64,000 bases of DNA from Malus domestica (lineage: Eukaryota; Streptophyta; Magnoliopsida; Rosales; Rosaceae): positions 26,565,501 through 26,629,500 of the forward strand of contig NC_091665.1 in assembly GCF_042453785.1 (NCBI RefSeq), in the 5' to 3' direction. Both the position numbers and the translations under genes were made by a program. Positions 3,171 to 60,800 of the stretch are shown in pieces (within the stretch, counting starts at the first letter, position 1; each line of letters opens with the position of its first letter). Under the pieces are notes generated by a model. It was given only the letters and a program-made list of their open reading frames with translations. It was not told the DNA's origin and did not search any database.

Positions 3171-3378
3171 TGTAAAGAATAGAGCAAGAATATAATTTGC
3201 GGAAGTGTGTTTTCTTCTATTGAAACAAGGAGATTTATACAAAGAAGAATACTTGACTGAGAAGTAAATTACCCTACTTTCTAGGTATACAACAGGAAAC
3301 TAAACTTTATACAAATCAATTACAAAAATGTTTCCTAAACTAAGCCAAGATATCAGGAATGATATCATTGACTTCTCT
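3171..3378 (-). repeat. 3' LTR of the Copia element
   Basis: Near-perfect direct repeat of 7797-8004. It is adjacent to the purine-rich tract at 3382-3390, which marks it as the 3' LTR of a minus-strand element. Confidence 0.92.
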
Positions 3379-6300
3379 ACACTCCCCCTCAAGTTGAAGA
3401 GTGGATGTCAAGAACTCCTAACTTGTGTATAATGGACAAGAACGATTCCTTTCCCAATGCCTTCGTGAACACATCTACGAGTTGTTGTGAAGAAGGAACA
3501 AATCGCGTAACAATAGAACCATCTTGTATTTTATCTCGAACAAAATGGCAATCCATCTCTATATGTCTAGTTCGCTCATGGAAAACTGGATTGGCAGCAA
3601 TATGAAGAGCTGCCTTGTTGTCACAATGTAATAAGGCCGGTTTTGGATGCAACAATCCCAAGTCCTTTAGAAGATATCGAAGCCATGATAGTTCACAACA
3701 AGTTCTAGTCATGGCTCTATACTCGACCTCAGCTGATGATAAAGATACGGTTTTCTATCTCTTTGATCTCCAAGAAACCAATGAAGAACCCAAAAACACG
3801 CAATACCCTATGGTTGATCTTCGTGTCATAGAACATCCTGCCCAATTTGAATCACAGTATGCATTCAAGGTCAAGTCATTTTTAGAAGAGAAAAATAAAC
3901 CTTGTCCAGGAGTACTCTTTATGTACTTCAAAACTTGGAGAGCTTCTTCCATGTGTGGACGGCGAGGTTCATGCATAAACCTACTTAGCACATGCACTGA
4001 ATATGTGATATTCGGCCTAGTAATTGTTAAATAGATCAATCGACCCACCAACCTCCTATACTGTGCCGGATCTTTAAGTAACTCACCATTGTCAGAAAGT
4101 TTAAGATTCAACTCCATAGGAAACTCAATTGGGCGAGCTCCCAAGAGACCACCATCCTTCAGAATCTCTAAAGCATACTTACGTTGAGAAATGAAAATCC
4201 CATTCTTTGATCATGACACTTCGATGCCTAGAAAGTATTTCAAGTCACCAAGGTCCTTGATTTTGAAACGACTATTGAGAAAATTTTTGAGATCCCTAAT
4301 GGCATTAGGATCATTTCCAGTGATCAGAATATCACCAACATAAATTAAAAGAACTGTAAAAGACTTGCCTTGCTGCCTTGTGAACAAAGAGTAATCAGCA
4401 TTTGATTGAACATAACCAGCACAGTGAATAGACTCAGAAAACTTGGCAAACCATTGTCGGGATGCTTGCTTCAATCCATATAAGGATTTGTTAAGGCGAC
4501 ATACCAAATTCTCCCCCTGTCGCCGAAGACCGGGAGGAGGAAGCATATAGATTTCTTCATGAAGATCACCATGAAGAAACGCATTGTTGACATCAAGTTG
4601 ATGAAGAGACCAGGAACAGGAAGCAGCAAGAGCTAAGAGGCAGCGAACAATGGTCATCTTAGCAGTGGGAGAGAAAGTATCATGAAAGTCGATCCCTTCA
4701 AGTTGTGTGTAACCCTTGGCAACCAAACGAGCTTTATAACGCTCAATGGATCCATCAGAACGAAGCTTGATTTTATAGACCCATCGACAACCAATGGGAG
4801 ATTTACCAGCCGGAAGAGAGGTGAGAGTCCACGTGTGATTAGCTTCGAGAGCCTGTAGTTCAGAAGTCATGGCAGCCTGCCAATGAGAGGAAGCAGTAGC
4901 CTCGGAATAAGTCTGGGGCTCAACCTGTTGAGTGATAGTTGCAAGAAAAGATTGTTGTGCAGGTGAGAAACGATGATAAGTGAGATAATTAGCAAGTGGA
5001 TAACGCGTACCAGTAGTAGGACCAGACAACGAAGACGATGAAGGATCGGGTTGGGTAAGCTTAAGAGTAGGGCAGTCATAATCTCGCAACCGTGGAGGCG
5101 GTAAGGAGTGGTGGCTAGAGCGGCGAAGCATCGGTGCAGGTGGTGCAGGAGGCAAGGAGGCAGCATGCTCGATAAAAGATGCATCAGGGGGTAGGTCAGA
5201 ATCTGTGGAAATCTCGGGAGAAAACAAAGTGGTAGAAGTATCAGTAGACACGGGTGAGGGAGAAGGTGTAGTAGCTTGAGGCTCAGGTAAAGAGGGTGTA
5301 GGGTGAGGAGAGACGAGAGGTAGTGGCGTAAGGTTAGGTGAAGTAGAGGATGGAAAAGAATGGTAAGGAAAAATATGTTCATGAAAAACAACATCCCTGC
5401 TAGTAAAAAAGGTATGAGTGGTAAGGTTGTAAAGTTTGTACGCCTTTTGACCAACGGGCTACCCAAGGAAGACACATTTATGGGCTTGGGGAGCAAACTT
5501 GTGAGAGAGACGGGTGTTGGTGGCATAAGCAAGACAACCGAAGACTTTAAGGTGGGAAAATGAAGGTGGTTTTAAGTACAATCATTCAAAAGGAGTATTT
5601 TGGGAAAGAATGAGGGTAGGAAGATGATTAATAATATGAATAGCCGTAAGGACACATTCCCCCCAAAAAGTAATAGGAAGATTAGCTTGGAAACGCAAAG
5701 CACGAGCAATTTCAAGTATGTGACGATGCTTGCGCTCAACGACCCCATTTTGTTGGGGCGTATAGACATAAGAGCGTTGATAAAGGACCCCATGATCTTG
5801 GAAGAAACCACGAAGAGAAAAAAAATCTCTACCATTGGCTACTCGTATTTGGCGAATGGATGTATTAAACTGAGTTTGAACAAAAGAGAAAAAAAACTTT
5901 GAGAACGTGCTGTGTTTCTGATTTGTGTTGCATAAAAAATATCCATGTGAAACGAGAGTAATCATCCACAATAGTTAAGAAATACTTGGCTCCAGAAGTT
6001 GATGCAACTGCGTAAGGACCTCAAATATCACAATGGATCAAATCAAAAGGTTTTGTGGTTGTAATGGAACTGATACTAAAAGGTAAATGACTTTGCTTGG
6101 CAAAAGGACAAACATTACAAGCATTATTGGATTGAAAAGGAAAATGCAACAGGTGTTTTGACATGAAATCGAGCCTAGAAGGGGATATGACCCAAACGCC
6201 AATGCCACAACTCCGTGGGTGAGAGAACAAGGTTGTAGACTTGGCGGGAGCTACAAGAGACGGTGGGAATCAACGTCACCAAGTAGTAAAGTCCTCTGCG

Positions 6301-7796
6301 TTGCTTACCCAAACCAATCACCTTCTTCGTCGTCAAGTCCTGCATAATACACCATGAAGGAAAAAAAGTTACAGAACAATGCAATCCACTTGTAATTCGA
6401 CTCACAGACATCAATTCTACTTGAAAAGAGGGCACACACAACACATCTCGTAACAAAAAAGTGGAACTTAAAGGAACTGTCCCAGTGGAGACTATGCGAG
6501 CTTGCTCTTCACTTGGTAATAAAGCTGGTGACAAATTGGTGTTTTTGACACTATCAGTAAGCAAATCAGGTGATGAGGTTATATGATCTGTTGCACCACT
6601 GTCGATTATTCATCAACGTCAATTCAAAGAAGATTTCGACAAACCTGTTTTCATGGCAGCAACATTAGCTTTTGGAGGAACGGAGACATCAACTCCTTTA
6701 TTATTCATGATGTCAAGGATTTGCTGGAATTGGGTGTCAGATAACCCGGACATCACCGACTTCATCTCTTCCAAAGTTGCACCTGTTGAAACTTGATTTG
6801 CAGACGAAGAAGAACTGCCTTCCTTTTTAGAAGACTTACTTCCTTTTTGAGGCTTGACTTTGTGAAGACAATGCCCCGGTGGATACCCGTGAAGTTGGTA
6901 ACAAGTATCAATGGTGTGATAATCATGATCACAATGAGTACAATGCAAGGGCTTACGACTTGAAGATCTAGATGACCGTGAACCACCTTGTCGAACAGCC
7001 ATAGCTGCTGTCTCGGTGACTCCACGTGAAGCAGTAAGAGATCTTTGCTTCGCTTCCTGGGAAATTGAAGCATAGGCCTGACAAACAGTCGGTAAAGGGT
7101 TCATCAACAAGACTTGCCCTCGAATGGCACTATAGGACTCGTTGAGACCCATAAGGAACTGCATTAATTTATTTCTTTCATTATGCGCTCCGCATGTGCA
7201 GGAAGTAGAGTCACTGTATGACGCCAGTTCATCCCATAATTTCTTTAGCTTCGTGTAGTACGCAGCAACTGAGAGTTGGTCTTGAGTAAGAGAAGCAATG
7301 TCCCGTTGTAATTGGAAAATCCGAGGAGCATTGCTTTGGGAATAACGCTCATGCAATTCCTCCCAGATTGCATGAGCATCAGTCATGTATAGAATACTGT
7401 CAGAAATTTCTGAATCAATGGAGTTGATGATCCATGCAACGATCATGTCATTGCATCTCTGCCATGTAGCATGATCAGCACGTTTGGTTTTCTTGGAAGG
7501 CTGTGTAACAGTACCATCAACAAACCCTAGCTTGTTTTTGGCACTAAGGGAGATTCTCATTGCACGAGACCAGGTAGAGTAGTTGTCCCCATTAAGGGGC
7601 TTCGAAACTAGCATCATAGATGGGTGATTTGAATGATGAATAAACAAAGGATTGGAAGCATCAGTCTTGACGTCAGCCGCAAAACCTTTGGGAATTTCGT
7701 CAGCGGCCATGATGGTTGACGGAAGATGGCTATTGAAAAATAGCAAAAAGAAGGGCAGCGGCAAGAACTAGGGTTTCGACCTATCTCTTGATACCA

Positions 7797-8004
7797 TGTA
7801 AAGAATAGAGCAAGAATATAATTTGCGGAAGTGTGTTTTCTTCTATTGAAACAAGGAGATTTATACAAAGAAGAATACTTGACTTAGAAGTAAATTACCC
7901 TACTTTCTAGGTATACAACAGGAAACTAAACTTTATACAAATCAATTACAAAAATGTTTCCTAAACTAAGCCAAGATATCAGGAATGATATCATTGACTT
8001 CTCT
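7797..8004 (-). repeat. 5' LTR of the Copia element
   Basis: Near-perfect direct repeat of 3171-3378, adjacent on its inner side to the tRNA primer-binding site. Its outer edge is only 18 bases from the ATG of the PP2C-like gene, so any minus-strand LTR promoter would point away from that gene. Confidence 0.92.
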
Positions 8005-8022: not shown

Positions 8023-11000
8023 ATGCCTCCAGGTACCAGCAAATCAGAGAATATATTACCACTGTATCACTCGAAAAAGAAAGCAGGGGCGGGAAAATCA
8101 GAGAGTACATTAACAGTGCGTTACTCGAAAGAGGAAGCAGGGACTAGTAAATCAGAGAATAAATTACCAGTTCAGCAATCGAAAACCGATATGCTTATCA
8201 GCAAATTTGACTACGTTTTTCGCTCTGGAAGCTGTTCCGGAGTTGGAAGAGAGTCAGAGGAGGATGGGCTTTTCTGTGTCGATAACCTTAAGGAACATCT
8301 CGGCATAACAGGGCACTTTCCTTTTCCTGCAGCAGCTTTCTACGGGGTCAGTAATCTAGCTAATCGCTAATCTCATAGAGTTAGTTTGTTAAGTCTGGTT
8401 GTTATGTTAGTTAGGGAAACATATCCTCTCTCTCTCTCTCTCTCCACACATTGCTCAGTATTCTGTAACTGTAAATGAAATCACTTCTTCTTCATTTCTT
8501 CCTCTATCATATCAATTTTTTTCTGAATGTGCTCTTCACCATTTTTTGTGGTGTCCTTGAGGGTACATTACATGATTTTAGCTTGTAGCTAGCTCAACAG
8601 ATTAGCGTTGCTGTGTGATCTTTAATCATAAATAACATGCCAACATTTAATTTGTAGGTTTTTAATGGCCCTGGTGGTGGAGCTGCAGCTTCTATCATAA
8701 GGGAGCACATTTTTAACTTCATAGTTGAAGATAAATGTTTTACCTTTACCATTAAGAAGGCAATTAGGGAAGCTTTCCAAAAAGCTGGCCATGCTTTTGC
8801 TGATATTGGTGCTCCTGATAGTTCATCCATCACCAGTGCACTTAGTGTCCTCTTCTTGGGAAGGTTAGTAGGCACACAAATTTGAATTTCATTGAGATTA
8901 AGATCGTTAATCTATATTGTAATATATCTCATCTTATTGTACCAAAGCCCGGCCACGGGTAAAATGTCATATTGTGTGATTGTATAATTATTTGCCAACT
9001 GTCTATTCTTGTTCAAATGTGATTTGTGTAAGAGTATGAGTATGATTCTTACAAGTCTTGGGATAATTGATATTATAAAAAAGTCTAAATCTGATAAGGA
9101 ATGCAGTCTTGAGAGAAGTTCCAATTGGTTTTGGAAAAGAACTTTGTGTTGGAACTTTATAAAGTCTCATGAATCTTTATGGTTTGTATGTCTTTGAATC
9201 CTAGTCCAATTCTGATAGGGAATGGACGAAGGAGCACTATATATTTATGGTTCAAACCACTGCTCTTGCGATTTTAGCTTATGTTGTTCTAAGTCCTATT
9301 GATTAGAGAAGCTATTGTGATCGTAAAAGAGGAGAAGGTTTCGAACACAGAGGCTGCAATGGCTTCTTCATCGGTATCGAACAATGCAGAACCAGGTTTG
9401 AGTTCCTGTCTCCTTAGAAATCAAGGTTATAAAGGTACGATCCTATAGAACATATCTTGTTCAGGTATGTACTGGTGCAATTGTTTCTGTTTTCACATTC
9501 ACATTACATACACGATCAAAGGGTTGTGATTTAGTTGATTAGTCCTTATGTTCTTGGCTGATGCGTTAGTCTATAAGTTTATATCTCCTATCTTACATGT
9601 GGTATCAGAGCCAATGGATTTTTCATCTAAATTCAATCTTAAAATCGTTCTTTAAAATCTGCAAAACAAACTAACCTGAAGGATAAAGTCTGTTTAAATT
9701 CAAATTGCAGAATACGACGTCGTTTTTTATAGTATTATTAAAAAAAATAAAAAATTATGATTGTTGGCTTCGAAAAACCAAACTGGGTTTTTAAAATTAC
9801 GTTCAAAATTTTTGACCGTTGTCGAAGCAAAGAAGGAAAACAACTCTCGATCTTCAATCTCTGAAGGAAAGATCCATAATCTTATATGGCAATTTCGTCT
9901 TTCCAAAACATCATAAAATCAAATTTCTTGTATAACTGTTTCCGCTGCGTTGATTATGATGTCTGCAAATTGAGGGGCCTGCATTGTTAAGCTTTGTCTG
10001 TTCAGGAAAGAATGGAAAGAGCAGGAGTTAGCCCTGATATGGTGACGTACAATTCTCTTATGTATGCGTCTTGTAGAGAAGGATTCTGGCCGATAACTTT
10101 GGTGATGGCAATCCATATGGATAGGTCTCAAGCATTGATGGATAATTTATTTCGTTGATTTGGAGCCAAGGAATTGCAATCGGGTTGACGAATACGGGTC
10201 CAATGATGCATTCAGGTAACCCACTTCACTATTTCATGCATGATTAATTGTTCTCCTCTATGCATGATTATAGTGTGATGAGTTGGAGCATAATGAATTA
10301 GGGTTTTTGCTATTTCGAGTATGCTTGTTTAAATATATTGTGAAGGCATGATTAAACTCGAAACCCCTATAGATGCCAACTTGTGATTTATGTGAGATGT
10401 CAGGAATCATCCTTTGCTGCATAAATAAATTAGTGTAGGTCTAGGTATACTCTTCTATATTTAATTAAAGAGCCTATGTGCATGCTAATGGTAAGTACCG
10501 TCTTCATTATGAGAGCATTTCTTCCAAAGCAATTCTTAATATTTCCTTGCTCCTCTTAATTCTTAGCAAGATTAACCTTAAATCTTCGACTGCATGATTA
10601 ATTTTTACAAAGTTGGACTTTAAATGTGGGAGGTTTAAGTAGATGGAATACAAGATATGCTTGTTTGGTTTGGAATGGATTCGACTGAATATATAAAGTG
10701 GATGTCAATTGTGTTGTGATTTATATATAATAGCATATATGAATGAAATTTGTATGCATATGGAGATAGCATTTGTGCATAGATGCTGTAATTATGGGCA
10801 TGCGGTTTTGTCTATATCAAAAAGAACTTGCATAAGTTTCTTTGCATATTGATGCATGCATACAAGAAAATATATGAACAAATGAATATATAAGGTAGAT
10901 GTTTTATTGACCGCCTACAATGAGTCTTGCGACAATAAACTTTTAGCCATTTACAAAATGTATATTCTATTATGAATCGGAAAACAAATAATTATTTTGT

Positions 11001-14000
11001 CATCTTATTGGAAATTCATAAGATTAATGATATGCGGCTATCATTATTTTCTCCATTGACTTGCTTGCGAATCTGTATATGATTGATGATGGTGTTGACA
11101 ATGAATTAAAGGCATGAAGATTTTTTAATTTGGATTATTGTCGACTAATCTTATCATGTATATATCAATGCATGCTTATTGTATATGTATATTTGTGATT
11201 TCATGATGCATGCTTCGGCTATTATATTTTGGTTGAAATCACAAATAGGGAGGAAGATGAACCTTGAGTTCTCCAGAAGAAATAGTGGTTTTGATTATCT
11301 CATTTTAATCAAGACATATTGTTGTGATATATATCCAGACATTATCAAATTTTGGTTGATCTTGCTCGATGGATGTTGAACTAGATATTGAACTAGTTAA
11401 GATCAAATTGAATGCAAAAATATTGTGCTTGCTATTCTGATTTTGATCATTGTTGAAACTGGTGATTTTGGGTTTATGTGAGATAAGTTTTTTTTTCGAA
11501 TGGATTGTGACTATCTTTTGATACATAGACTGTTTGCATAATGGTTTAGGTGTATATAACTAAACTAAGATTATGCAATTGGTGAGGAATCGGGAATTAA
11601 TTGGTTCATATCTCCGATTTCTTTATTGGTTGTGCAGTACATTCTGCTTATGCTTAAGTGGGAGAATCATATGTTTGACTGTAAGCATAAGGCTATTTAG
11701 GCCGGCCATTATAATTCATTTGGATGCTTGAAAACCAGTTTATGGTTTTATTGAAGCAATTGGTTGAATTATTTATGTTACTTAACTTTTTTAAGTAATG
11801 AGAGGTTTAGTGCTATTTGCTGGAACTAAACTTAAACTTGATATAGTGGGAGCAAACCAATTTATGTGTTTGTTCTGGTCAAGTAAAATCACATTGTTGT
11901 AAATACAAATTGGATGCATGTGATCATGGAATCTGTTTGCATATTGGTTATGGCAATTGATCACATTGATAAGACATTCAGTGTATTGCAATGACTGTTA
12001 GTTAATACAGTTGATATTAACTTATACCTAACTTGTTTGTGTTAAGTATAGCCTAGATAAGTGAGAGCAAATTGGTTTGGTTTTGCTAAATTGGTTCACA
12101 TAATTACAAAGTTCACATAATTACAAAGTGCAAATTAAGTATGTTGTGACTTTTGAGTTAATTCTGCGATGTAACAGAAAAGATTCTTAAGTTCAATACT
12201 TTAAAATGCATAGGTAAGTTGTATGTGAGGATAAGCTTTTGTTATCCAAAACATTTGGTAATTTTTATATCAATTTGGGCTATATGAGTGGGAGTAGACG
12301 TCTTGGTTTACTCTTGAGCTTAGATACATTGCTATGAACATAAACTGGACATTGTGATTTGTAAGTTAAATCTGTATTTTGTGTTGCAGAGGCAATTATA
12401 AATTCATTGTTTTGGTTTATGTAAGCAGGTTGTGTCTATGTACTAGTGTGATGGTGAATGACTTATCTGATCACCTTTATAATAATTTGAGATGATTATC
12501 TGTTGTGATGAATCATACTCAAGTGGGAGAATGTAAGAGTATGAGTATGATTCTTACAAGTCTTGGGATAATTGATATTATAAAAAAGTCTAAATCTGAT
12601 AAGGAATGCAGTCTTGAGAGAAGTTCCAATTGGTTTTGGAAAAGAACTTTGTGTTGGAACTTTATAAAGTCTCATGAATCTTTATGGTTTGTATGTCTTT
12701 GAATCCTAGTCCAATTCTGATAGGGAATGGACGAAGGAGCACTATATATTTATGGTTCAAACCACTGCTCTTGCGATTTTAGCTTATGTTGTTCTAAGTC
12801 CTATTGATTAGAGAAGCTATTGTGATCGTAAAAGAGGAGAAGGTTTCGAACACAGAGGCTGCAATGGCTTCTTCATCGGTATCGAACAATGCAGAACCAG
12901 GTTTGAGTTCCTGTCTCCTTAGAAATCAAGGTTATAAAGGTACGATCCTATAGAACATATCTTGTTCAGGTATGTACTGGTGCAATTGTTTCTGTTTTCA
13001 CATTCACATTACATACACGATCAAAGGGTTGTGATTTAGTTGATTAGTCCTTATGTTCTTGGCTGATGCGTTAGTCTATAAGTTTATATCTCCTATCTTA
13101 CAATTTGATCCATATGATATCCCTCTTTAGGAAAATGCTAATTGCGAGTGTTGGGGATTATCAAGCTGTGATGGGACGAAGAGGCAAGGAAGTTGTGCTG
13201 ACTTCCGAAGACCTAGAAGGCTCCAAATGTTCCTCAGGTCCCTTGCCTGCAGCGCCAAAAGTTCAGGAGATAATTCTGAGCGAGGAAGATGAGTTCTTGG
13301 TCCTAACATGGAATGATTATAATATGTGCAGCCCGCATTTATTTACCCATGCAAGGGAAGAATTAATGGATAACAATGATCCGGAAAGATGCGCAAGAGA
13401 GTTTGTTAGAGAGGCACTCCACTGGAAGTGGGGTACCAACACGAAGAATGTGGTAATATGCTTCTCGCCCAACCCACCGCCACTTCTGTCACCTTTGTCT
13501 GAGATTTCAAACCCAGAATCTGAAAATACGGAACCTAAAAATAATACAGAATCTGAAAACCATGTAAGTTCCGACATTTGTTTTGGCTAATTCCTTTCTT
13601 TCCTTCATTTTCCCATTCCAAGTTTATTAAAGGTAATACGTAATCAAACTTCTGTTGCAGGGTACTGACCTAGGTTGGATGTTTTTAGTCACGGCCCTTT
13701 GCCTGGAGACCATATCCATTTGTTGTGAACAAGTTGCCTCTCCACACAAGCCAATGTATGCAATATACGGCCTGGTATTGGCTTTTCTGGGTCTACTCGC
13801 AAGCATGTCTGAGATGGTTTACAATGGCAAAAGGCAAAAAGTTGAATTTAGGAGGTGGTGGTTCTACGAACCACGCCCCCCTCATAGGGCTTTGGGTGAT
13901 GTGATAGGTTTTTCATCAGTAATTGGTGCCTTCTCCCAGTGCGTTGTCGCTTCGCTTCAGTATGCTTACATAATCCGACACCGCGAAAATCCTATCAAGG

Positions 14001-14110
14001 CGGAACTCTTGCCTATGATCATTATCGTATGCTTGCTCGCTTTAAGATTAATAAAGCGTAGAAACAAGACCCGTGGGAACTATGACTCACAAATTCAAGG
14101 AGGGGGATAA
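8023..14110 (+). CDS. PP2C-like pseudophosphatase fused to a C-terminal four-helix membrane domain
   Basis: Four exons join in frame: 8023-8346, 8658-8863, 13131-13563 and 13661-14110, all with GT-AG introns, giving 470 aa. Residues 8-55 hold about three imperfect 20-residue repeats (TSKSEN-type). Residues 66-321 align with plant PP2C phosphatases: RSGSCSGVG, DNLKEHLG, FYGVFNGPGG (normally FYGVFDGHGG), GRKMLIASVGDYQAV, EEDEFLVL, NDPERCAREFVREAL and CFSPNPPP. The DGHGG aspartate is Asn, the DGLWD and DN(L/V)T aspartates are gone, and the DHKP...VARALGD centre is missing, so phosphatase activity is not expected. Residues 322-470 contain four predicted membrane helices (about 326-343, 354-375, 400-426, 437-452) with a basic tail. 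I cannot name this domain, but it resembles small plant-specific membrane proteins of unknown function. Intron 2 holds a 4.1-kb LTR element, and the leader is split by Copia. It could be a decaying pseudogene, but the frame is open throughout. Confidence 0.75.
9027..9597 (+). repeat. 5' LTR of the non-autonomous element
   Basis: 571-bp direct repeat of 12532-13102, followed at once by the tRNA primer-binding site. A TATATATTTATGG stretch near the middle is a possible LTR TATA region. Confidence 0.93.
10006..10089 (+). pseudogene. PPR-like gene fragment captured inside the LTR element
   Basis: One frame reads ERMERAGVSPDMVTYNSLM, then YASCREGFW. This fits the consensus of a pentatricopeptide repeat motif (..M..AG..PD.VTYN.L...) very well. 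It is the only recognisable protein signature in the interior of the 9027-13102 element. It is too short to be a gene and probably represents host sequence picked up by the element or by an ancestor. The match is from memory of the motif consensus. Confidence 0.5.
12532..13102 (+). repeat. 3' LTR of the non-autonomous element
   Basis: 571-bp direct repeat of 9027-9597, preceded by a purine-rich tract. Its outer edge lies 28 bases before exon 3 of the host gene, so the original branch point region may have been moved or replaced by LTR sequence. Confidence 0.93.
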
Positions 14111-15571: not shown

Positions 15572-18500
15572 TATTAAGGATAAAAATGTAATTACACCTT
15601 CAAGGGATAATACTTAGAGGCTAAGGAATGTTTAGTTAGTTAGTTTAGTTATTCCTTTTGTTAGTTGTGATGACAATTGTGATGGTTGTGATAGCCTTGT
15701 ATAAATACTCAAAGTGTAAAGTTATGCATTGAATTAATGAGAAATATTTTTCCTAATATGGTATCACTCGCCCTCAGTCTCACAACGTCTATTTTTCGAT
15801 CCTCGTTTCCTGCTTCTCTCTGCACCACTTCATCTTCTCCGATCAATTGATCGCGTTCTTGATCTTGATCGTGATTTGTTGTTCTCGATCGTGATTTGTT
15901 ATTCTCGATCGTGATTTCTCTCTCAATCCAACTATGGTGACTGCTACATCTTCTTCCTTGGAGTCCACAACTCCAAACTCTAACCCTAATTCTGCGATTT
16001 CTTCCTCAATTACAATCCAAAATATTGGATCCCTGGTTCCGATCAAGCTTACAACCACAAATTACCTGACCTGGAGTGCCTTATTTGCTCCAATTTTTCG
16101 TCGCTACAATCTTACCGGTCTTATTAATGGAACCACGACGGCGCTGCCTTAATATCTCCTTGATTTTTTTGGCAATCGCACTGCAACTCTCAATCCTGCT
16201 TATGTTACTTGGTTTGAGAATGATCAAAACAGTCTGATCTGGATCAATTCCACTATGTCTGAATCTTTGATTCCTTACACAGTCGGCATAACTTCTGCTC
16301 GCGAACTTGGGCTAAATTGGAATCGCGTCTCGCCACTGCATCTCAGTCTCACATCCATGAGCTTCGATCTCATCTTCGCAGTCTTGTTAAAGGTGAATTG
16401 ACTGCTGCTCAATATCTCCAGCAAATTGAAGAAATTGTAGATGCACTCGCAAGTGCTGGTGCTCCTGTTGAAGATTCAAACCTCATCTCAGTCACACTTC
16501 ATGGCTTGCCTCCCGAATTTGACTCTTTTGTGGATGCTATTCAGTTTCATCTTGGTTCCACGACTATTGATGAATTGCACGGATTACTTCTCAGTAAGGA
16601 GATTCAACTCAACAATCGGAAGAAATCTGTCTCAGTTGCACCATTTCAGGCATATAATTCCTCCGCTGGTATTCTTCCCTTGCCTACTAACTCTACCCCT
16701 CAAGCATTTGCTACACAACATCTTCTTCATTTCTCCAATCAAGGCCGCAATGTGGATCGCAATTATCCGGGCACAAATTGGGGTAATTTTCAGAATCGTG
16801 GAAATTCCAAATTCAACAATGGCAGAAATAACTACTCTCGTAACAATCAAAGATTCAATCGTGGAGCTCGCAATAACTACTTTTCCCATCGAAAGGTTTT
16901 CTATCAGATTTGTCGACAACCAGATCATGAGGCTTGTGATTGTCCTCATCGCATGGATCAAAACTACAATGGCAAATCTTCTCATTCTGCGATGGTTGCT
17001 AGTACCTCAACTTCTACTCCTACCTGGATTGTTGACTTTGGTGCCAGTTCCCATATGACAAACTCGCATGCCAACCTTCAGAATCCAGAAGCATACACTG
17101 GTCTTGAGCAAGTGTATATTGGTGATGGCAAAGGTTTGCCTATTCTCCATTATGGCTCATCCTCTTTACATACTTCTACTGAATCTTTTGCATTGAAGCA
17201 TGTCTTACATGTTCCTGATTTGAAGCACAATCTTCTCTCTGCTAATCAATTTCTACTTGACAATTCTTGTTCTATGCATCTTTATACTTTTCACTTCACT
17301 GTGAAGGATCTTTCTTCGGGGAGAATGCTTTTTAAAGGAGCAGTTCAACATGGATTCTATCCTTTTCACTCATCATTCTATCCTGCTAATTCTCATCAAG
17401 CTTTAGCTGCCTCTGTCAAAGCTCCAAAGCATCTTTGGCATCAAAGATTGGGCCATCCTTCTGTAAAGATCATGAATAAGTTGGCCTCTCAATCATATAT
17501 TTTTGTTCTTGATGCTTCAAATAAAACTTTTTGGTCAGCTTGTGCACTAGGGAAATGTTCTAAACTTCCTTTTTCTAGTACTACTTGTACAACCCGCAAG
17601 CCTTTAGAACTTATCCATACGGATGTTTGGGGACCCTCACCCATAATGTCTCATCATGGTTTTCGGTATTATGTCATTTTCATAGATGATTATACCAGAT
17701 ATTGTTGGTTCTATCCTTTAAAGTGTAAATCTGATGTCTTCTTCACCTTTATGCAATGGAAATTACTTGTTGAGAATTCTCTGTGTACAAAAGTTATTAC
17801 ATTACGATCAGATTCTGGTGGCGAATTTGTTAGCACTGCATTCTCTCAGTTCTTAGCTAGCCATGGGATTCATCATCAGCTCACTTGTCCTCAACCCTCG
17901 AGCAAAATGGGTGTGCAGAACGTAAGCATCGGCATATTGTCGAGACTTCTTGAACCGTCTTGGCTGCATCTAAAGTGCCTCATGCTGATTGGGTTGAGGC
18001 TTTTTCTACCTCTGTCTATCTCATCAACAGGTTACCTACTCTATCCAGATACTCTAATTGGCAGTCTCTTTTCCAGAAAGCCCCTGACTATAAATCTCTC
18101 AAGGTTTTTGGTTGTAGTTGTTTCCCTTGGTTGAAACCATACACATCCTCAAAACTAGATCCTAAAAGCAAGCCATGTGTCTTCTTGGGATACAGCTTAA
18201 ATCACAAGGGCTACTTGTGTTTACATCCATCTACTCACAGGTTATATATTTCAAGGCATGTCCTTTTTGATGAGTCACTTTTTCCATTTCATACCTTGCA
18301 ACCTTCTCCATCCCAACCTGTCTCCTCATCTCCCTTATACCAATCCTCTATTCCCTCAGCGCTCACATTTACCTCTTATCTTCCTCATCCTACCTTTACA
18401 CCAAATACAACCTCCCAAAATACAACCTCAGCTGCTTCTCCAAACCAGATCCCAACCTTTGCAGCTTCTCCACACCAGATCCAAACCTATGCAGCTTCCC

Positions 18501-20286
18501 CAAATCCCCACTCCTCCCAGCCTATATTACCTATTAGCAACCACCAAATGCAAACCAGATCCAAATCTGGAATATTCAAACCCAAAGCATTAGCTGCAAC
18601 CACGCACCCTATTCCCTCCTATCTTGTAGTTGACTATGTTCCTATAACCTACCTACAAGCTTCTAAACACTCTCATTGGCGCATAGCAATGCAAGAGGAG
18701 TTCAATGCCCTTGTAACAACTGGTACATGGTCCATTGTACCACCTTCTTCTTTTCATAATCTTGTGGGATGTAAGTGGGTGTTTCGGATCAAAAGGAAAC
18801 TAGATGGCTCTATTGACAGGTACAAAGCCCGCTTGGTTGCTAAAGGGTTTCACCAACAAGAGGGTCTTGACTACACTAAAACCTTTAGTCCAGTGGCCAA
18901 ACTCGTGACTATTCGTCTCATTCTCACTCTTGCTGCTCAATTTGATTGGTTCCTCAATCAATTAGATGTCAGTAATGCCTTTCTCCATGGCACAATTACT
19001 GAATCAGTGTTTATGCAACAGCCACCTGGCTTTGAAGATCCAACAAAACCACATCATGTTTGTCATCTTCACAGATCCCTTTATGGTTTGAAACAGGCTC
19101 CTCGAGCTTGGTATGACAAGCTTCATAATGCTCTGCATTCTCTTAGGTTTCAAGGCTCTTAAAGTGATCATTCTCTGTTTATCAAGAGTTCCCCTACTCT
19201 GGTATTCATCCTAGTCTATGTCGATGACATCTTAGTCACCAGACCCTCATCTGCAGCTTGTCAACAAGTCATCACTCAACTCAGTGCTCTTTTTCCCATC
19301 AAGGATCTTGGTGCCCTTCACTACTTCCTTGGTATTGAAGTTAAAAGATCATATTCTGGTCTTTTAATCTCTCAAACCAAGTATATTTTGGATCTATTGG
19401 CAAAAGCAAAAATGGAAGGTGCCAAGCCCTGCAGCACCCCTCTCAATACCACCAAGCTGGATCACTCGTCTCCCCTGCTTGAAAATGCTTCTGAATATCG
19501 ATCTCTAGTTAGAGCTCTTCAGTACTTAACCTGGACTAGACCTGATCTCAGTTTTGCTATTAATTTGGTATGTCAGTTTATGCATAGTCAAAGACTTTCA
19601 CATCTACAAGCAGTAAAACGTATTCTCAGATATCTTAAGGGTTCTCTTGATCTTGGATTATGGTTCTCCAAGTCCTCTCAGGCTCCATCTATTCAAGCTT
19701 TTTCAAATGCTGATTGGGCTGGGTGTTCTTTGGACAGAAGATCCACATGAGGATATTGTGTATATTTTGGCAACTCTCTCATTAGTTGGAGTGCCAAGAA
19801 GCAACATATTGTTGCTCGTTCCTCAACTGAAGCTGAATATCGATCTCTTGCCAATACAGCTGCATAAATCACATGGATATGTAAACTGCTTGCTGACATT
19901 TCTTATTCTCTGCCTCATTCTCCCAAGATCTGGTGTGACAATCTCTCTGCCATTTCCTTAGCAAAAAATCCCATTTTTCATGCTAGAACAAAGCATGTCG
20001 AGATTGATTACCATTATATTCGTGAAAAGGTTCTAGCCAATCAAGTTTCTGTGCAGTTTATCTGTACACAGGATTAGGTAGCAGATATTTGCACCAAATC
20101 TCAGTCATAGCCTCGGTTCATCCTTCTTCGTGACAAACTACAACTGCGAATACCACAGTCTCGTTTGCGGGGGGATATTAAGGATAAAAATGTAATTACA
20201 CCTTCAAGGGATAATACTTAGAGGCTAAGGAATGTTTAGTTAGTTAGTTTAGTTATTCCTTTTATTAGTTGTGATGACAACTGTGA
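15572..20286 (+). mobile_element. Ty1/Copia retrotransposon with TA...TA LTR ends, broken
   Basis: The 5' LTR (15572-15758, 187 bp) begins TATTAAGG and ends CCTAATA. It is followed directly by a tRNA-Met-type primer-binding site (TGGTATCAC, 15759-15767). The 3' LTR starts at 20176 after a purine tract (GCGGGGGGA) and repeats the first 111 or so bases with about two differences. It then stops matching near 20286, so it is truncated. Parts in order: gag (about 15934-16960), protease and pre-integrase (about 17000-17460), integrase core (about 17600-18130), reverse transcriptase (about 18650-19370), RNase H (about 19480-20130). The coding region is broken at roughly five to seven places. The lineage looks Ale/Retrofit-like, which is tentative. 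LTR similarity suggests a fairly recent insertion. Confidence 0.88.
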
Positions 20287-25797: not shown

Positions 25798-29444
<3,647 letters not shown>

Positions 29445-30404: not shown

Positions 30405-31514
30405 ATGGCGATCTGCCACCAATCTCCGTTCAAGTTCTTCACCGCCATCCCATCACAATCATCGAAGCCCAAACCCCTCCACCTCCGATGCAATTTCTCC
30501 CTCCCCTCCCGACCCCCCCTCACCTTTACCGAGCCCGAACCCGTCTTCACCTCCGTCAAGGCCTTCGCCCCCGCCACCGTCGCCAATCTAGGCCCGGGAT
30601 TCGACTTCTTGGGCTGCGCCGTCGATGGTCTCGGCGATTTCGTCTCCCTCACCATCGACCCCCAGGTCTCGCCGGGCGAGATCTCCATTTCCGAGATCTC
30701 CGGCGACCACAAGTCCAAAAAGCTCAGCAGAAACCCTCTCTCGAACTGCGCCGGAATCGCCGCCATTGAAGTCATGAAGATGCTCGGAGTCCGATCGGTA
30801 GGCCTTTCCCTCACTCTGGAAAAGGGGTTGCCTTTGGGCTCCGGTCTCGGATCCAGTGCGGCGAGCGCGGCGGCGGGTGCTGTTGCGGTCAACGAGATTT
30901 TTGGCGGGAAATTGGGGATAGAGGAATTGGTGATCGCGGGGTTGAAATCGGAGGAGAAAGTGTCTGGCTACCACGCTGATAACATAGCTCCGGCGATTAT
31001 GGGAGGGTTCGTGTTGATTCGGAGCTACGAACCGTTGGATTTGATTCCGTTAGTCTTTCCGGATGGTAAAGAATTATTTTTTGTGTTGGCAACGCCGGAG
31101 TTTGAAGCTCCGACGAAGAAGATGAGGGCGGCGCTGCCGGCGGAGGTCGGGATGGCCCACCACGTCTGGAATTCGAGCCAGGCTGGGGCGCTGGTGGCGG
31201 CGGTGCTGCAGGGGGACGTGCCAGGGCTTGGCAGGGCCTTGTCGAGCGATAAGATAGTGGAGCCGCGGCGGGCCCCTCTGATCCCCGGCATGGACGCGGT
31301 TAAAAAGGCGGCAATCGAGGCTGGAGCATTCGGGTGCACAATAAGCGGGGCGGGGCCCACTGCGGTGGCGGTCACGGATGATCTCAAGAAAGGAAAGGTG
31401 ATCGGAGAAAGAATGGTGGCGGCATTTCTAAAGGAAGGGAAATTGAAGGCGGCGGCGAGTGTGAGCAGACTCGACCGGGTTGGTGCCAGGCTTGTCGGCA
31501 CCATTCCGAGATAG
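30405..31514 (+). CDS. HSK: Homoserine kinase, plastidial
   Basis: Single-exon gene of 369 aa. It phosphorylates homoserine to O-phosphohomoserine, the branch-point substrate for threonine and methionine synthesis in plastids. Residues 1 to about 50 are rich in Ser, Pro and basic residues with few acidic ones, fitting a chloroplast transit peptide. The mature part shows GHMP-kinase motifs: FAPATVANLGPGFDFLG near residue 54, the ATP loop GLPLGSGLGSSAASAA near 145, and a C-terminal GCTISGAGPTAVAV near 312. Length and the lack of introns match plant homoserine kinases (Arabidopsis HSK/DMR1 is also intronless). The coding sequence is strikingly GC-rich compared with its surroundings. The upstream leader is short, and a TATA-like CATATAACA lies about 75 bases before the ATG. 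The frame is intact. Confidence 0.96.
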   Translation: MAICHQSPFKFFTAIPSQSSKPKPLHLRCNFSLPSRPPLTFTEPEPVFTSVKAFAPATVANLGPGFDFLGCAVDGLGDFVSLTIDPQVSPGEISISEISGDHKSKKLSRNPLSNCAGIAAIEVMKMLGVRSVGLSLTLEKGLPLGSGLGSSAASAAAGAVAVNEIFGGKLGIEELVIAGLKSEEKVSGYHADNIAPAIMGGFVLIRSYEPLDLIPLVFPDGKELFFVLATPEFEAPTKKMRAALPAEVGMAHHVWNSSQAGALVAAVLQGDVPGLGRALSSDKIVEPRRAPLIPGMDAVKKAAIEAGAFGCTISGAGPTAVAVTDDLKKGKVIGERMVAAFLKEGKLKAAASVSRLDRVGARLVGTIPR

Positions 31515-31739: not shown

Positions 31740-32279
31740 ATGCTCAATGATTTTCTACCTTGTATTGGTCCTTTAAATCCTCTCTTTTGGGAACTTGCTA
31801 TTCATCATTCTCTCATGGCTCTCCATTGCATGTTTTTCACCGGAAAAATTCCCCTTCTTACTCCGTTCTTTTGCATCTTAACCTTTATCATTGTCCTGAT
31901 CACTCCACTCTTGAGCATCTTAATCGTTGTTGTTGTCATGATCGTCCGCCTGGTGCTGTGGCTTGCTGCATTGTTCGACCGTCACATGGCCAGATCTAGC
32001 GCTTCCACGCCTCAGCCTCCCAACCCTTTGCCTGACCAAGGACTCGAGGAAATGATTATCTGTTCGCTTCCTAGCGTCTCGTACAATGCAGAAGCGGATG
32101 CAAGACTAGCAGAATGTGCAATCTGCTTGATGGAGTTTGTGGATGGAGATGTCACAAGGGTGTTGCCTCATTGTGGTCACGGATTCCATGTGAGTTGTGT
32201 TGATAGGTGGCTGAGGTGCCACTCTTCGTGCCCGTCTTGTCGCGGCAGTGTGGTTGCGGAAGAGGGGTGTTACAAATGA
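31740..32279 (+). CDS. ATL-type RING-H2 E3 ubiquitin ligase
   Basis: Intronless frame of 179 aa. An N-terminal hydrophobic stretch (about residues 41-80, two adjacent helices around PLLTPFFCILTFIIVLI and SILIVVVVMIVRLVLWL) anchors it in a membrane. A short linker leads to a RING-H2 finger near residues 125-166: CAIC, then CGHGFHVSC, then CPSC, with C-x-H-x2-H-x2-C and C-x10-C-x2-C spacing. This order (membrane helix, linker, RING-H2 with DRWL) is typical of the plant ATL family. These proteins are membrane-bound E3 ligases, often intronless and induced by stress or elicitors. A downstream Met at 31815 would still keep the hydrophobic region and gives 154 aa; I cannot decide between the two starts. 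It lies 225 bases after homoserine kinase, but there is no reason to link their functions. Confidence 0.88.
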   Translation: MLNDFLPCIGPLNPLFWELAIHHSLMALHCMFFTGKIPLLTPFFCILTFIIVLITPLLSILIVVVVMIVRLVLWLAALFDRHMARSSASTPQPPNPLPDQGLEEMIICSLPSVSYNAEADARLAECAICLMEFVDGDVTRVLPHCGHGFHVSCVDRWLRCHSSCPSCRGSVVAEEGCYK

Positions 32280-32677: not shown

Positions 32678-35600
32678 TTAATTGTTCTTGGCAGCTGCTG
32701 CCTGCTTTGCACCAACAGAGAAAAACTCGGTAATCACTTCAAGGGGCATGCCTTTGGTCTCGGGAACTTTCAAGAAAACAAAGATAAACGCTATGACGCA
32801 CACAACTGCATACATGCCAAAAACACCAGCAAGGCCAACTGATTTGAGCATCACCGGAAGTGAGTAGGTGACAATGATATCACCAATCCAGAATGTGAGG
32901 GCGCAGATGGCAATGCAGAGGCCTCGAACTCTGGTGGGAAAGATTTCTGCACAGAGTATGTTGGGGATTGGACCAAACCCCATAACAAAGAAACAGAAGT
33001 AGAGCACAACACTGACAGTCGAAACTGATGCATTTACAACACTTCCCATATTCACAAGACTTCCGAGGACTAGGATGGCCAGAGACACTATCAGGACAGG
33101 GATTGTGCCGAGCAGCAAACTCCTGAATTAAGAATGGTTCCAAATTGTTAAATTAGACAATACACAAATTTAACATTGAAAACTTAACCGAAACATAAAT
33201 GATGCTCAACATCTTATTTTGAGGATCACGAAATCGAGCATGCTAATGCAAACGAAAAATATACGAAGCAGTAAGTGTTCAGCTGGCCATTTGAGCAAGA
33301 TGTCAAGATATAACCAAAAGAATATATTTACCTTCTGCCGGCTAAATCCATGAGCCTCATGGCAATGGCTATGCTAGGAAGCATCAGTAAGGTTGTTACT
33401 GCACTGATAAGCAGAGATGCAGAAGCTGAACTAATGCCCAAATTCGAAAGAAGAACCCCAACGCCTGCCTGCTCAAGAATTTGAGGCGTGTAGTAGAGAA
33501 CCCCGTTTATGCCAGAAAACTGCATGAAAAAGAAAAAACAAAAAAAGTTGGAATCATTATAACACAAAAATTAATGGAGGTTTCTCAGTAATGAATTTTC
33601 ATTACCTGCTGAAGTATCTGAATTCCCACCCCAACAACCAAAGCATGCTTGACTCCGGGTTCGAAAAGGTCACTCCAACTTGGTCCTTTTGCAGGAGTTG
33701 CAGCTGGGTTAACCATTGCCGGTCCAACTGGATGCTGATTCATATGTTCACGTGAATAAAGAGCCGGTTCACTCACCAAAGCAGCAGCCTGGAAGAACTG
33801 ACCATCGTTCGGTGCATCACCACCGGGAATCGAAACAATAGACCCACGACGAGATGCAGCATCACCCTCCTGGTGTAAATAAATTCTTTTAAACCCTCCT
33901 TCCTTGTGTCCATCTTGGCCTTCTCTCTCACACCATTTCCACGCCAGCTGCCAACCGCCACCAATCCCGGTGCTACTAGCTCCCTCTCCACCAATGAGAC
34001 TGTTGTTTCTTATGCTAGCAAGGCTTCCATGTGGAGGTGGGCCAATGTCTTTTTCAAGGCTTGTTGCCTGACGCGAGATCAATGGACTCTGCAAATTGTC
34101 ATCAGAAACACCACCAGCTGCATCAGATGCATAACCCTCTCCTTCTCTGGCAAGGCTTTCCTCGTCCCACTCTTCGTGTCTAGGCTGATTCCCTCCCACA
34201 CTGAACATGCTGCCAAAGTGCGGAAAAAGCATACTTCCCTTACTTCCTGTATCGGGGAGCTTCTCATGTACACTGCCAAAGAGAGAGACGAGAGGATCAA
34301 CAATACCGCTTTGATTTACCATTCTTGCATGTCGAGACACAAGTCCAAGAGTGCTTTGCCCAGTTACAGGTCTGGCAACCCAGGATTGTCCTTGTTCAGG
34401 CCCATATAATCTGATTTTATCCTTTTCAGCGGATAAATCGTGGTCATCAGCGAGGTCATCCTCTGGGCCAATTATGTACTCCTCAAAAGATGTTTCACCC
34501 CCAACTCCAAGACCCTCAACAAGTAAAGCCATTTCACCTGTTGGTCAAATAAGGATCAAACATCACTCAAACAATGCAGGATTGCAAATCAAATAGTTAG
34601 TTTAGGGAAGCAAATATCACATACTTTCCTACTAACAAAGATTATGTAATGTGAAATAAGAACAGGAGAACAAAGCAACTTTATGCTTGCTCGAAAAAGG
34701 TTTCGTAATGTTACGGCTAAAAAGAATGCACAAAGGACTTTAACTCGAAGGACATAGAATGAAAATGCAGTCTTTTAAACATGACGACTCCAATTAAAAC
34801 TGACCTTTGAAATAAACCACTGGTTCTCTGATTTAATTTTTGAAAGTTTTACTATTTAGGTTGAACTAAAAATGACTTTACTAATAGTGACTAAATATTC
34901 AAAGATATCAGAATAAAGTCACTAACCAGAGACATCTTCTATTCCACGCAGCCTCTGTAGAACTTGTTTGGCCTCAAGCATCCGTCCCTTACTCACAAGC
35001 CATCGTGGAGACTCCGGCAAGAAGAACACAGTCAATACAAAATAAACAAGAGAAGGAATAGAGAGAACACCAAGCATCAACCTCCAACTTGGCGACTCTG
35101 TCAACGACATCCCAAAAACCATGCAATATGACAAGAACATCCCACCGGAGCCAGTAAACTGCGGAAGGGTATTCAACGATCCCCTTATCTCAGGTGGGGC
35201 TGTCTCAGATATATAAAGTGGTACCAAGGTAACCGCCAAACCAATCCCAAATCCATCTAAAAGCCGCGCCAAGAGAAGGATATAAACATTGGGAGACCAC
35301 AGCATTACAATACCACTAAGAAAGTAAAAGACAGAAGAGATTATAAGCATAGGACGGCGGCCTAGCCAGTCTGCTACGGCTCCAGAACAAAATGTAACCA
35401 CAGTTGCGCCTATAAGCGACATGGCCACAATCAGCCCTTCCACGGCGGGTTCACTTTCCAAGTTGAACTCCCTTTTTATGTACAAAACAGAAGCTGCAAG
35501 AAAAACCGAAAAGTTCACTATAAACACTAACTTATAAGCAAAACTCCTCACAGAAAAATCGAATCATAGACCGCAAATGAAGTAAACTTCAGGCTAGACC

Positions 35601-57875: not shown

Positions 57876-60800
57876 TCATGCGCCATTGTTACCATCTTCC
57901 AGTGACAAACATTTGTGCAACTGAAAGCATCTCAAGAAGTTAGCGGTCATGGTCATTATACTCAGTACCACTTTCCAACCTCTGCCTGCACCATTGCTAT
58001 TGCTACTGCTGCTCTCCTCATGTTCTACAAGCGTGCATTCACTTTCTCGATCTTCTTCTTGCTCTACCAGCTGATATTTAAGTCCCAAAGATCCATGGCC
58101 TTCGGACAAAAAAAACAAAAGATCAATGGCCTTAAAATAAACTTGTGAACATCTACCTACCTGATAAAGATCAGTGGTTTCATAGCTGGAGTGAAATACA
58201 CACACACACACACAGAGAGGACATACGAACCACACACCTGTTATTTCATTACTGTTGTGCTTGAACCAAACATAACTAAGCGCATCCCTTCTTTCTAATA
58301 CTGGATTATGGCAGAGAAGGTATGTTCCTGATGATCCTGGAAGCAGATACTGTGACAAATCTCCAGCAATGACACGTGGATAAAAAGGATTATCTGTGGT
58401 GAAATTTTCATGGGCGGTGACTGTCACCTTCTCTTCTTGCTCGTAGTACACAACCTGGACACCGAACTCCTTTACCTGAAACTCATCATATCTCATATAT
58501 GATGATGTTAATACTGAAATAGTCAGCTCATCGCCACCTTCCAATTTATTCCCGAATTTCCAATGGCTTAACCATATCACATCTTGATCATCACTTGGAA
58601 TTCCGAATAATGCTGGCCCGTAGATCCACCGCAGACCTTTACTCTTATTTCTAACATCTATCGTTATTGTATAACATAAATCATTCATATTTTTGACTCT
58701 GGTGTTAGGAGATTCATCGCTTTTGGATTTTTCATAGACAGAGAAGATGTTCAAGCCTCGGATCCTGCAATAGGGAAGTACAGGCACAGTAAAAGATATT
58801 GAGGGCCCTCTACTTTTATGGCTAAATGAGTCATATTGAGGAACCTCATAATTCCCAGGAAGAAATGTGCTGAATATTCCAAATTCATGCAGTCCCTATA
58901 CGTGCCATGGAAATGTATAAAAATTAGTCAGAATACTCTTGCGGGCATACAGTATTATGATCGGAATGAGAGAGACGTAGAGAGAAAGAAACCTGGATGG
59001 GAAGACGCTTTTCTATCCATCTGTGGAACCGCGCGGGTATCTTGTACTTCATAATGGATTTTGTTGAATATTTCAAGTTGCTCAAACCCAAAATGTTGAT
59101 CATTTCTATATCAACTCCTTCAATAGGCTCCATCTTGTACACTGACTCAAACTCAACTAGCTTATGGTTGCCACGGCATACGATGGAGCGCATTCTAGAG
59201 TACACCTCACTTAATGATTGAAATGTTACCGTTTCCAACTTTTCACAATCAGCGATTATCAAGTGTCCTACAGTTGGTAGCCTTACAAGCGATTTGAGCC
59301 TTTTACAATCCTCAAAAGAGAGTCTACGAAGCCCCGTAACACCTCTAATGCAATCTGGTAGGCTATGAATTGGATTACCCCCCAGATCTAAGCTACACAA
59401 CGCGGATAAGTTGCCAAATTCTCTGGGAAAATCATCATCACCAAGATTGCACTTTCTAAGACTCAAGTCTACCAAATTGCATGGTAGATAAGAAGCCCAA
59501 GTAATTTCTACATTTCGTCTTGGCCATAATGTGACCTCCTCGGTAGCAGTGAGTAACTGATGTATTGGAACACCGTCAGCTTGAAACACTTTCAGAGATT
59601 CCATCTTCCTCATGTCTATGGGAAAAACGCTGAGGCTTGAGCAACCAGATATAACAAGTGTTTCGAGGGAGGTTAGCTTAGAAATATTCTCTGGAAGCTT
59701 CTTAATACTTTTGCAATATTCCATATTCAAATGCACAAGTCCCTCTAGGTTTCCAATGGATTCATGGACATCAACCAAGCTTGAACAATCTTTAAGAATC
59801 AGCCATTCTAGATTGGGGACCAGAGAAAAGTCCAGGGTTTCGGTGAGGTCATTGGAATGGCTAAGATTTAGAATCTTTAGTGATGGGAGAAACTGTTCAG
59901 AAAATTGAAACAAGGTAGAATTACATTTTTACTAATGTACAACTAATCACTGAAAAACCTAAAAAGAAAAGGGAAATTATAACAGTGTGAAGAGTAGCAA
60001 ACCTTTGTTCCCTTCCAGACTTGCCTCATGCTGCTGTAACACATTTCCAGAACAACCAAATTCTTCAAAGAAAAATCAGAGGGTATAGAACCCTTAAAAA
60101 ATTTATGCCAACACAACCATCTTAAGCTTGTCGGAAATTCTTCATAGGATCCATTGAGTTCTATATAAGTAAGCTGCAGAAGTCTTAATTTGTGCATCAT
60201 TGAAAACGCACCCGTTTCAAAAACTACCTGATTTGAATTTCTTGAAGAAGAGTACTCTGGGTGGTTTTGCATGTTGAGAGCAAGACCTTCAATTGTTTGC
60301 GTTCCCTATTTAACATAGAGAAGAAAGAAAATTGGTTAATTAGCTATGACAGAACCAAAAGAAACATGAACACATATTAGGAGCATATGTTTCTTACATT
60401 CTTTTCTGCCAATACTGCAAAAGAATCCTTATGATGCCATAATCTACTACGTTCCCCAGGCTCCTTTGATTCCAGACGAACAATTCCTCTTGCCATGTCA
60501 CGGATCATGTGATGCATCTGCACCATATTATCTCCATCGAGTCTTACCAAATTTCTATCAATGAGATTTTGAATTCCAACAACTGTGAAAAAATCACAGG
60601 CATCTAGTATTCTAACGATGATATCTTTCTCCATTCCGATAAAGAAGCAGGCAATATGAAGGAAAAATCTTGGTCATGGCTATCTTGCAAGGAATCATAG
60701 CTTATTTTGAGTTTTTTCAAGATTTGACTGTCCGGAATAACTTTCAGTTTGCTTATTGCACTTTCCCATACAGCTATATTCTTTCCTGCCATTGAAGAAC

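What the first reader, a model, noticed from the sequence alone, without database searches (positions are those of the whole stretch)
8023..14110. PP2C-derived pseudophosphatase fused to a four-helix membrane domain
Four exons with canonical splice sites join without a stop into 470 aa. The phosphatase part is clearly PP2C (FYGVFNGPGG, NDPERC, FSPNPPP) yet has lost the DGHGG, DGLWD and DN aspartates and about 60 residues between RRGKE and the EEDEFL segment. It is followed by four predicted membrane helices that I cannot place in a named family. Established knowledge: active PP2Cs need these aspartates to bind metal. Inference: a membrane-tethered, catalytically dead PP2C could act as a decoy or scaffold. 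I do not know of this combination as a described plant system. A recently dying gene fusion is the main alternative.
Basis: partly seen in the sequence, partly recalled or inferred. Interest (0 to 1): 0.8.

Follow-up and report, generated by a model that had tools for sequence, protein, structure and literature searches.

The report
Broken phosphatase with borrowed membrane tail
A decayed copy of a plant phosphatase gene has gained a four-helix membrane tail, and relatives of that tail exon sit next to several unrelated signalling and immune-receptor gene copies in the same genome; whether the proteins are made and used is not known.

Summary
The four-exon, 470-aa PP2C–membrane gene model is real as sequence. 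The PP2C part is a decayed local copy of an intact PP2C 43 kb away: DGHGG, DGLWD and DN are lost (the first Glu-Asp pair remains), and 37, not 60, residues are missing. Two frameshifted sisters 15–18 kb away carry the same fusion. The last exon is the more interesting part. It belongs to a family of at least 23 loci in this genome, with no convincing Pfam, PDB or Foldseek match. All 20 members with a readable start have a splice acceptor at the same phase-0 position. It follows unrelated partners (PP2C, NLR fragments, IQ-motif, zinc-ribbon, U-box ARM) and precedes a CBP60 domain in one frame. Four kinds of chimaera lie 5–63 kb from a relative of their partner. The tail is constrained behind IQ and NB-ARC hosts (omega 0.33–0.49) but looks neutral in the window gene (omega 1.0; whole gene 0.78, interval about 0.5–1.2). 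The window frame stayed open while both sisters broke. A recent LTR element fills intron 2 and a Copia element ends 18 nt before the ATG. Expression and function are untested; a decoy role is speculative.

The parts
8023..8346 (+). Exon 1 of the model (may be a second exon): 59 residues without parental counterpart, then the start of the PP2C domain (RSGSCSGVGRESEEDG for the parent's RSGSCSEIGPKPYMEDE)
8658..8863 (+). Exon 2: PP2C segment with NGPGG in place of DGHGG
9027..13102 (.). LTR retrotransposon inside intron 2, LTRs 9027-9597 and 12532-13102, no mismatch over 571 nt, target duplication ATTTG
13131..13563 (+). Exon 3: rest of the PP2C remnant; lacks 37 residues including the GDW aspartate; DGLWD and DN are gone; ends in a NPESENTEPKNNTESENH linker
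13661..14110 (+). Exon 4: four-helix membrane tail (149 aa), phase-0 acceptor, no Pfam family over cut-off; member of a family of at least 23 loci in this genome
3171..8004 (-). Copia-type retrotransposon; LTRs 3171-3378 and 7797-8004, 99.5% alike over 208 nt; ends 18 nt before the ATG of the gene model; no target duplication tested for

Best explanation
The gene is a young chimaera. A local duplicate of an intact PP2C gene lost most of its catalytic motifs and gained, as its last exon, a copy of a promiscuous four-helix membrane exon that carries its own splice acceptor in phase 0. The protein, if made, would be a PP2C remnant, very probably without activity, held on the cytosolic face of a membrane by four helices. 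Shown: the copy relationships, the motif losses, the shared fusion in two sister copies, and the tail family with its fixed splice phase and varied partners. Inferred: loss of activity, topology (positive-inside), translation, and membrane binding. The gene most likely was translated for part of its history. It is now weakly constrained and may be failing after two recent retroelement insertions.
For: The nearest intact PP2C, C5:26529196 (seen in all its PP2C exons), and its homologue C10:24935907 keep MED, DGHGG, DGLWD and DN; of a further copy at C5:26513747 only the last exon was seen. The sister copies P1 (C5:26555541-26556846, +) and P2 (C5:26558389-26557100, -) have the same fusion and the same losses in exons 2-3, at 84% and 83% nt identity to the window; no exon 1 was found for them. 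Exon 4 joins in phase 0. The acceptor AG is at the identical position in 20 of 20 family members whose exon start could be read. The parents show omega 0.105 and the stem to the fusion clade 0.83, i.e. relaxation. Disabling changes in exons 2-4: window 0; P1 5 own frameshifts and 2 stops; P2 4 own frameshifts and 2 stops; 2 frameshifts shared by P1 and P2. Neutral expectation for nonsense alone over 470 codons is 2.9 to 5.9. The loop after helix 2 is the most positive (7 K/R), favouring a cytosolic N terminus.
Against: No transcript or protein evidence. The window tail exon evolves at omega 1.0, and for the whole gene omega = 1 is not rejected (95% interval about 0.5-1.23). The Glu-Asp pair of the first PP2C motif is retained, so inactivity is inferred, not shown. 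The parent's first exon was not found and a Copia element sits directly upstream, so expression may be lost. I chose the one intact copy of three, which weakens the survival argument; that argument also assumes that the sisters' frameshift rate applies to the window copy.
Confidence: 0.68

Rival explanations
1. A working membrane-tethered pseudophosphatase: the PP2C remnant still binds PP2C partners (kinases, or pathogen effectors that target them) and holds them at a membrane as decoy or scaffold. (Overlaps with the best explanation, which leaves function open.)
For: Frame kept open in exons 2-4 while two sisters broke. PP2C part omega 0.55 on three taxa (2dlnL 2.8) and 0.36 with parents as outgroup (2dlnL 3.3), neither significant at 5%. 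The tail family is constrained behind other hosts. A PP2C pseudophosphatase is described in animals: PHLPP2 (PMC12002173, start of abstract in the listing); TAB1 is recalled.
Against: Tail of this copy neutral; 37 core residues are missing, so the fold itself may be broken; recent insertions upstream and in intron 2; no expression data.
Confidence: 0.2
2. A dying fusion: the window copy is a pseudogene in the making that has not yet taken a stop. (Overlaps with the last sentence of the best explanation.)
For: omega not different from 1; 2 of 3 sister copies already broken; parental first exon not found and a Copia element 18 nt before the ATG.
Against: Zero disabling changes in exons 2-4 against 7 and 6 in the two sisters.
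Confidence: 0.35
3. Two separate genes: the tail exon is an independent small gene that only happens to follow PP2C and other genes.
For: The tail exon is found beside many different partners; no RNA seen; for 4 of 22 loci no partner was recognised.
Against: A splice acceptor opens the exon in 20 of 20 readable members. In C8 NB-ARC and tail share one uninterrupted 643-codon frame. In C6 tail and Calmodulin_bind domain share one 353-codon frame.
Confidence: 0.06

Closest known systems
Plant PP2C phosphatases of the parent type (C5:26529196, C10:24935907; subgroup not determined here)
   Same: Exon layout of the PP2C part, 134 of 259 aligned residues identical, FYGVF, NDPERC and FSPxPPP retained
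   Different: DGHGG, DGLWD and DN and 37 core residues lost; foreign N-terminal 59 residues; four-helix tail
Animal PP2C pseudophosphatases: PHLPP2 (PMC12002173, start of abstract listing) and TAB1 (recalled)
   Same: PP2C-derived domain without phosphatase activity
   Different: Not four-helix membrane fusions (recalled); studied and expressed proteins, whereas this one is weakly constrained and untested
KAPP, a membrane-anchored plant PP2C (recalled, no call)
   Same: PP2C held at a membrane by a fused anchor
   Different: KAPP has one N-terminal anchor, an FHA domain and an active PP2C; here a C-terminal four-helix tail and a PP2C remnant
NLRs with integrated domains / integrated decoys (PMC4759884, start of abstract seen)
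   Same: Extra domains joined to duplicated immune genes; some tail copies are joined to NB-ARC genes
   Different: Here the shared piece is an unnamed membrane exon joined to NLR and non-NLR partners; no decoy function shown

Membership tests
Active PP2C phosphatase | Aspartates of DGHGG, DGLWD and DN | tested here: not met
   NGPGG, gap plus TWN, TN in place; parent keeps all
Active PP2C phosphatase | Glu-Asp pair of the first motif (MED in the parent) | tested here: met
   EED in the window: M changed, E and D kept
PP2C superfamily by descent | Pfam PF00481 above cut-off | tested here: met
   55.8 bits, cut-off 20.3
PP2C pseudophosphatase with a function | Protein expressed and conserved under purifying selection | tested here: inconclusive
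   omega 0.78, interval about 0.5-1.23; expression not testable
Four-helix tail family of this genome | Sequence relation, phase-0 acceptor at the same residue, four helices | tested here: met
   27-43% identity to the 13 other aligned members, acceptor, helices
Any Pfam membrane family | Pfam score over the curated cut-off | tested here: not met
   Window member: both listed matches below cut-off. Over 14 members the best E is 0.001 (DUF6057, 4 members), matches scattered over 17 families; cut-offs are printed for the first member only
Pentameric ligand-gated channel four-helix domain (top Foldseek rows) | Significant structural match | tested here: not met
   0 matches at E<=0.001, best E 0.28, model pLDDT 59
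Integrated decoy | Binds a pathogen effector in place of its target | not testable with these tools
   no interaction data

The most novel reading that the evidence does not exclude
A self-contained exon (branch-point region, phase-0 acceptor, four-helix domain, stop) has been attached repeatedly to duplicated or broken copies of signalling and immunity genes. It turns soluble NLR, PP2C, IQ-motif, CBP60, zinc-ribbon and U-box proteins into membrane-tethered versions that serve as decoys or local competitors of their intact parents.
Probability: 0.17. Interest if true: 0.85.

Novelty: new variant of a known kind. Interest (0 to 1): 0.6.

Why it matters
If the tail exon is a recurrent add-on, plants would have a route for making membrane-bound versions of signalling proteins by reusing one exon with a fixed splice phase. 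The relatives that lie beside four kinds of chimaera make this testable: one can ask whether the tethered copy competes with its untethered relative. It also points to a conserved membrane domain for which the Pfam copy used here has no convincing model.

Tried and rejected
Pfam for 14 tail members and a profile search of PDB sequences gave no family. Foldseek of the first tail model against PDB gave only non-significant four-helix channel rows. The second model was also low in confidence, so I did not search with it.

Mobile-element ends around the tail exon: DNA similarity between members with different partners is mostly confined to the exon plus roughly 20-45 nt upstream, so I could not name a carrier element. 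C7a, C3b, C5c and C11c have no recognised partner in the DNA I fetched.

Long-ORF lengths alone separate the upstream sense side only weakly (15 of 22 loci with an ORF of 100 aa or more, against 9, 10 and 7 of 22 on the other three sides); the Pfam comparison is the cleaner test.

Ten paper searches listed nothing that describes this fusion or the tail family. Some listings were cut (12 of 944, 15 of 52, 10 of 75). Most subscription papers and all preprints are missing from the library. I opened no paper.

Full report
What is there. The window is G000:C5:26565501-26629500 in a 651-Mb assembly of 19 contigs; the size and matches on contigs C1 to C17 fit apple (inference, not stated by any tool). 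Pfam sees PP2C only. Three things differ from the finding. The block missing from the PP2C core is 37 residues plus 4, not 60. The Glu-Asp pair of the first motif is still there: MED has become EED. The model's first exon is doubtful: its first 59 residues match nothing in the parent, the parent's first exon was not found in the window, and an acceptor-like AG lies 4 nt before the ATG.

Where the PP2C part comes from. The nearest intact PP2C lies on the same chromosome at C5:26529196, about 43 kb from the window gene, with a homologue at C10:24935907; a further copy at C5:26513747 was seen only in its last exon. The first two keep MED, DGHGG, DGLWD and DN. The window has NGPGG, a gap plus TWN, and TN for the last three, and the GDW segment is deleted. 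Two further copies of the same fusion lie between parent and window, 15-18 kb from the window gene and in inverted orientation to each other: P1 C5:26555541-26556846 (+) and P2 C5:26558389-26557100 (-). They are 84% and 83% identical to the window in DNA and 90% to each other; both are frameshifted, and no exon 1 was found for them. So the fusion came before the local duplications.

Selection. On 339 codons and three taxa, the window branch (which includes the stem of P1/P2) has omega 0.78; 1 is not rejected (2dlnL 1.2), interval about 0.5-1.23. The PP2C part gives 0.55 (2dlnL 2.8) and the tail 1.0. With parents as outgroup (180 codons) the parents show 0.105, the stem to the fusions 0.83, the P1/P2 stem 1.19, and the window PP2C part 0.36 (2dlnL 3.3, not significant at 5%). 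Against simple decay stands the open frame. In exons 2-4, P1 has 5 own frameshifts and 2 stops, P2 4 and 2, with 2 more frameshifts shared; the window has none. Nonsense changes alone would be expected 2.9 to 5.9 times under neutrality (P of none 0.057 to 0.003). The window copy was picked because it is intact, so these probabilities should be multiplied by about three. My reading: selected for translation in part of its past, now weakly constrained.

Recent insertions. Intron 2 holds an LTR element at 9027-13102 with LTRs that do not differ in 571 nt and a 5-bp duplication. A Copia-type element (gag domains) lies at 3171-8004 on the minus strand, LTRs 99.5% alike over 208 nt, ending 18 nt before the ATG. 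Its LTR next to the gene would drive transcription away from it (inference).

The tail family. The 149-aa tail finds at least 23 loci in this genome (my merging of the rows). Labels used here: C2a 33400059, C2b 33442920; C3a 8217330, C3b 26979566; window, P1, P2, C5b 16197231, C5c 17790975 on C5; C6 33772214; C7a 3886539, C7b 3913250, C7c 3923239; C8 12142167; C10 13104653; C11a 29793128, C11b 30198045, C11c 30217988, one at 30224000, C11d 30253207, C11e 30263715; C15a 3825522, C15b 3830354. Fourteen align with mean column identity 58%. None fits a Pfam family convincingly (best E 0.001), PDB sequences give 0 hits, and Foldseek gives 0 significant hits. Two AlphaFold models of low confidence (mean pLDDT 59 and 62) agree on four helices. 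A splice acceptor AG stands at the same phase-0 position in 20 of 20 members whose start could be read; one more (C2b) shows it by eye, C3a lacks the first half and the C11:30224000 copy was not fetched.

Partners. Of the 22 loci fetched, 12 have a Pfam domain over its cut-off in sense within about 1.7 kb upstream: PP2C in the window, P1 and P2; Rx_N at C2a, IQ at C15a and C15b, NB-ARC at C7b, C7c and C8, zinc-ribbon at C11d, ARM at C3a; and the ROQ1-type winged helix of a TNL at C10. Many of these are tandem copies, so the number of separate joins is smaller. Below cut-off or by genome search only: NB-ARC at C2b, zinc-ribbon at C11a, C11b and C11e, and an EF-hand/EH-like piece at C5b. At C6 the tail shares one 353-codon frame with a Calmodulin_bind (CBP60-type) domain that follows it; the piece before it looks like a CBP60 N terminus by eye but has no Pfam match. 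That makes 18 of 22; C7a, C3b, C5c and C11c stay unexplained.

Control. For a like-for-like test I took the longest ORF of at least 100 aa on each side of each locus. Upstream sense: 8 of 15 have a domain over cut-off. Upstream antisense: 0 of 9. Downstream sense: 1 of 10, the CBP60 fusion itself. Downstream antisense: 3 of 7, of which two are the neighbouring inverted PP2C copy and one a UDP-glycosyltransferase. The other 4 of the 12 (C2a, C15a, C11d, C10) came from stretches that I picked by eye, which the control sides did not get. C3a holds only half of the tail exon, so its link to the ARM gene may be chance.

Beside relatives of the partner. Besides PP2C, the CBP60 chimaera lies 25 kb from a relative (C6:33746761, 69% identical), the IQ pair 5 kb from C15:3835961 (60%), and the ARM copy 63 kb from C3:8280914 (91%); these three were judged by one open matching exon each, not as whole genes. 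The zinc-ribbon and EH-like copies do not lie near likely parents, and the NLR partners were not tested. In a tree of 22 tail sequences the PP2C, IQ, NB-ARC and C11 tails each form a group; C2a (Rx_N) falls apart from the NB-ARC group, C3b falls with C11, and 7 of 19 inner branches are unresolved. This fits, but does not prove, separate joins.

Is the tail functional anywhere? Pairwise omega of the tail exon is 0.40 for the IQ pair (2dlnL 9.2), 0.33-0.49 in the NB-ARC group (2dlnL 19.1, 3.9 and 3.6; the last not significant at 5%; one of these pairs uses C7a, whose partner is unknown) and 0.39-0.53 across hosts (2dlnL 6.7 to 15.8, at high divergence). Four pairs on C11 give 0.76-1.37 and cannot be told from 1. 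The domain is thus kept in some hosts, and not demonstrably in the window gene or on C11.

Mechanism. From topology rules the PP2C remnant would face the cytosol. I think an inactive PP2C piece tethered to a membrane by a reusable tail is the best description of the product; whether it is made, and whether it works as a decoy, scaffold or nothing, cannot be told here. Literature: ten searches listed nothing on this fusion or tail (call numbers under Tried and rejected); no paper was opened.

Noticed in passing
window 60607-61347, 62085-62639, 58927-59913 (minus): NB-ARC, TIR and LRR frames of one or more TNL-type resistance genes at the right end of the window.
   Followed up: partly
window 26145-27638 (+): ANF_receptor domain frame, probably a glutamate-receptor-like gene (name by recall).
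   Followed up: no
window 30405-31511 and 31740-32276 (+): GHMP kinase (probably homoserine kinase, by recall) followed by a RING finger gene.
   Followed up: no
window 34925-35551 (minus): Sugar transporter frame (Sugar_tr).
   Followed up: no
window 16317-19162 (+): A second Copia-type element (integrase and gag domains in 16317-18131; the second frame 17960-19162 by eye).
   Followed up: no
L017:1-1929 (C8:12142167): Rx_N + NB-ARC + tail in a single uninterrupted 643-codon frame; the old acceptor is still visible inside the frame, as if the intron had become coding.
   Followed up: partly
L018:1483-2541 (C6:33772214): Tail exon without a stop, read on into a CBP60-type calmodulin-binding domain.
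   Followed up: partly
L069:2831-3259 (C7:3888301-3892800) and L014: An unplaced stretch (APADNLAKVWNFISNSPIQFHQGM) that occurs three times upstream of the C7a tail; the two forms scanned have no Pfam match.
   Followed up: partly
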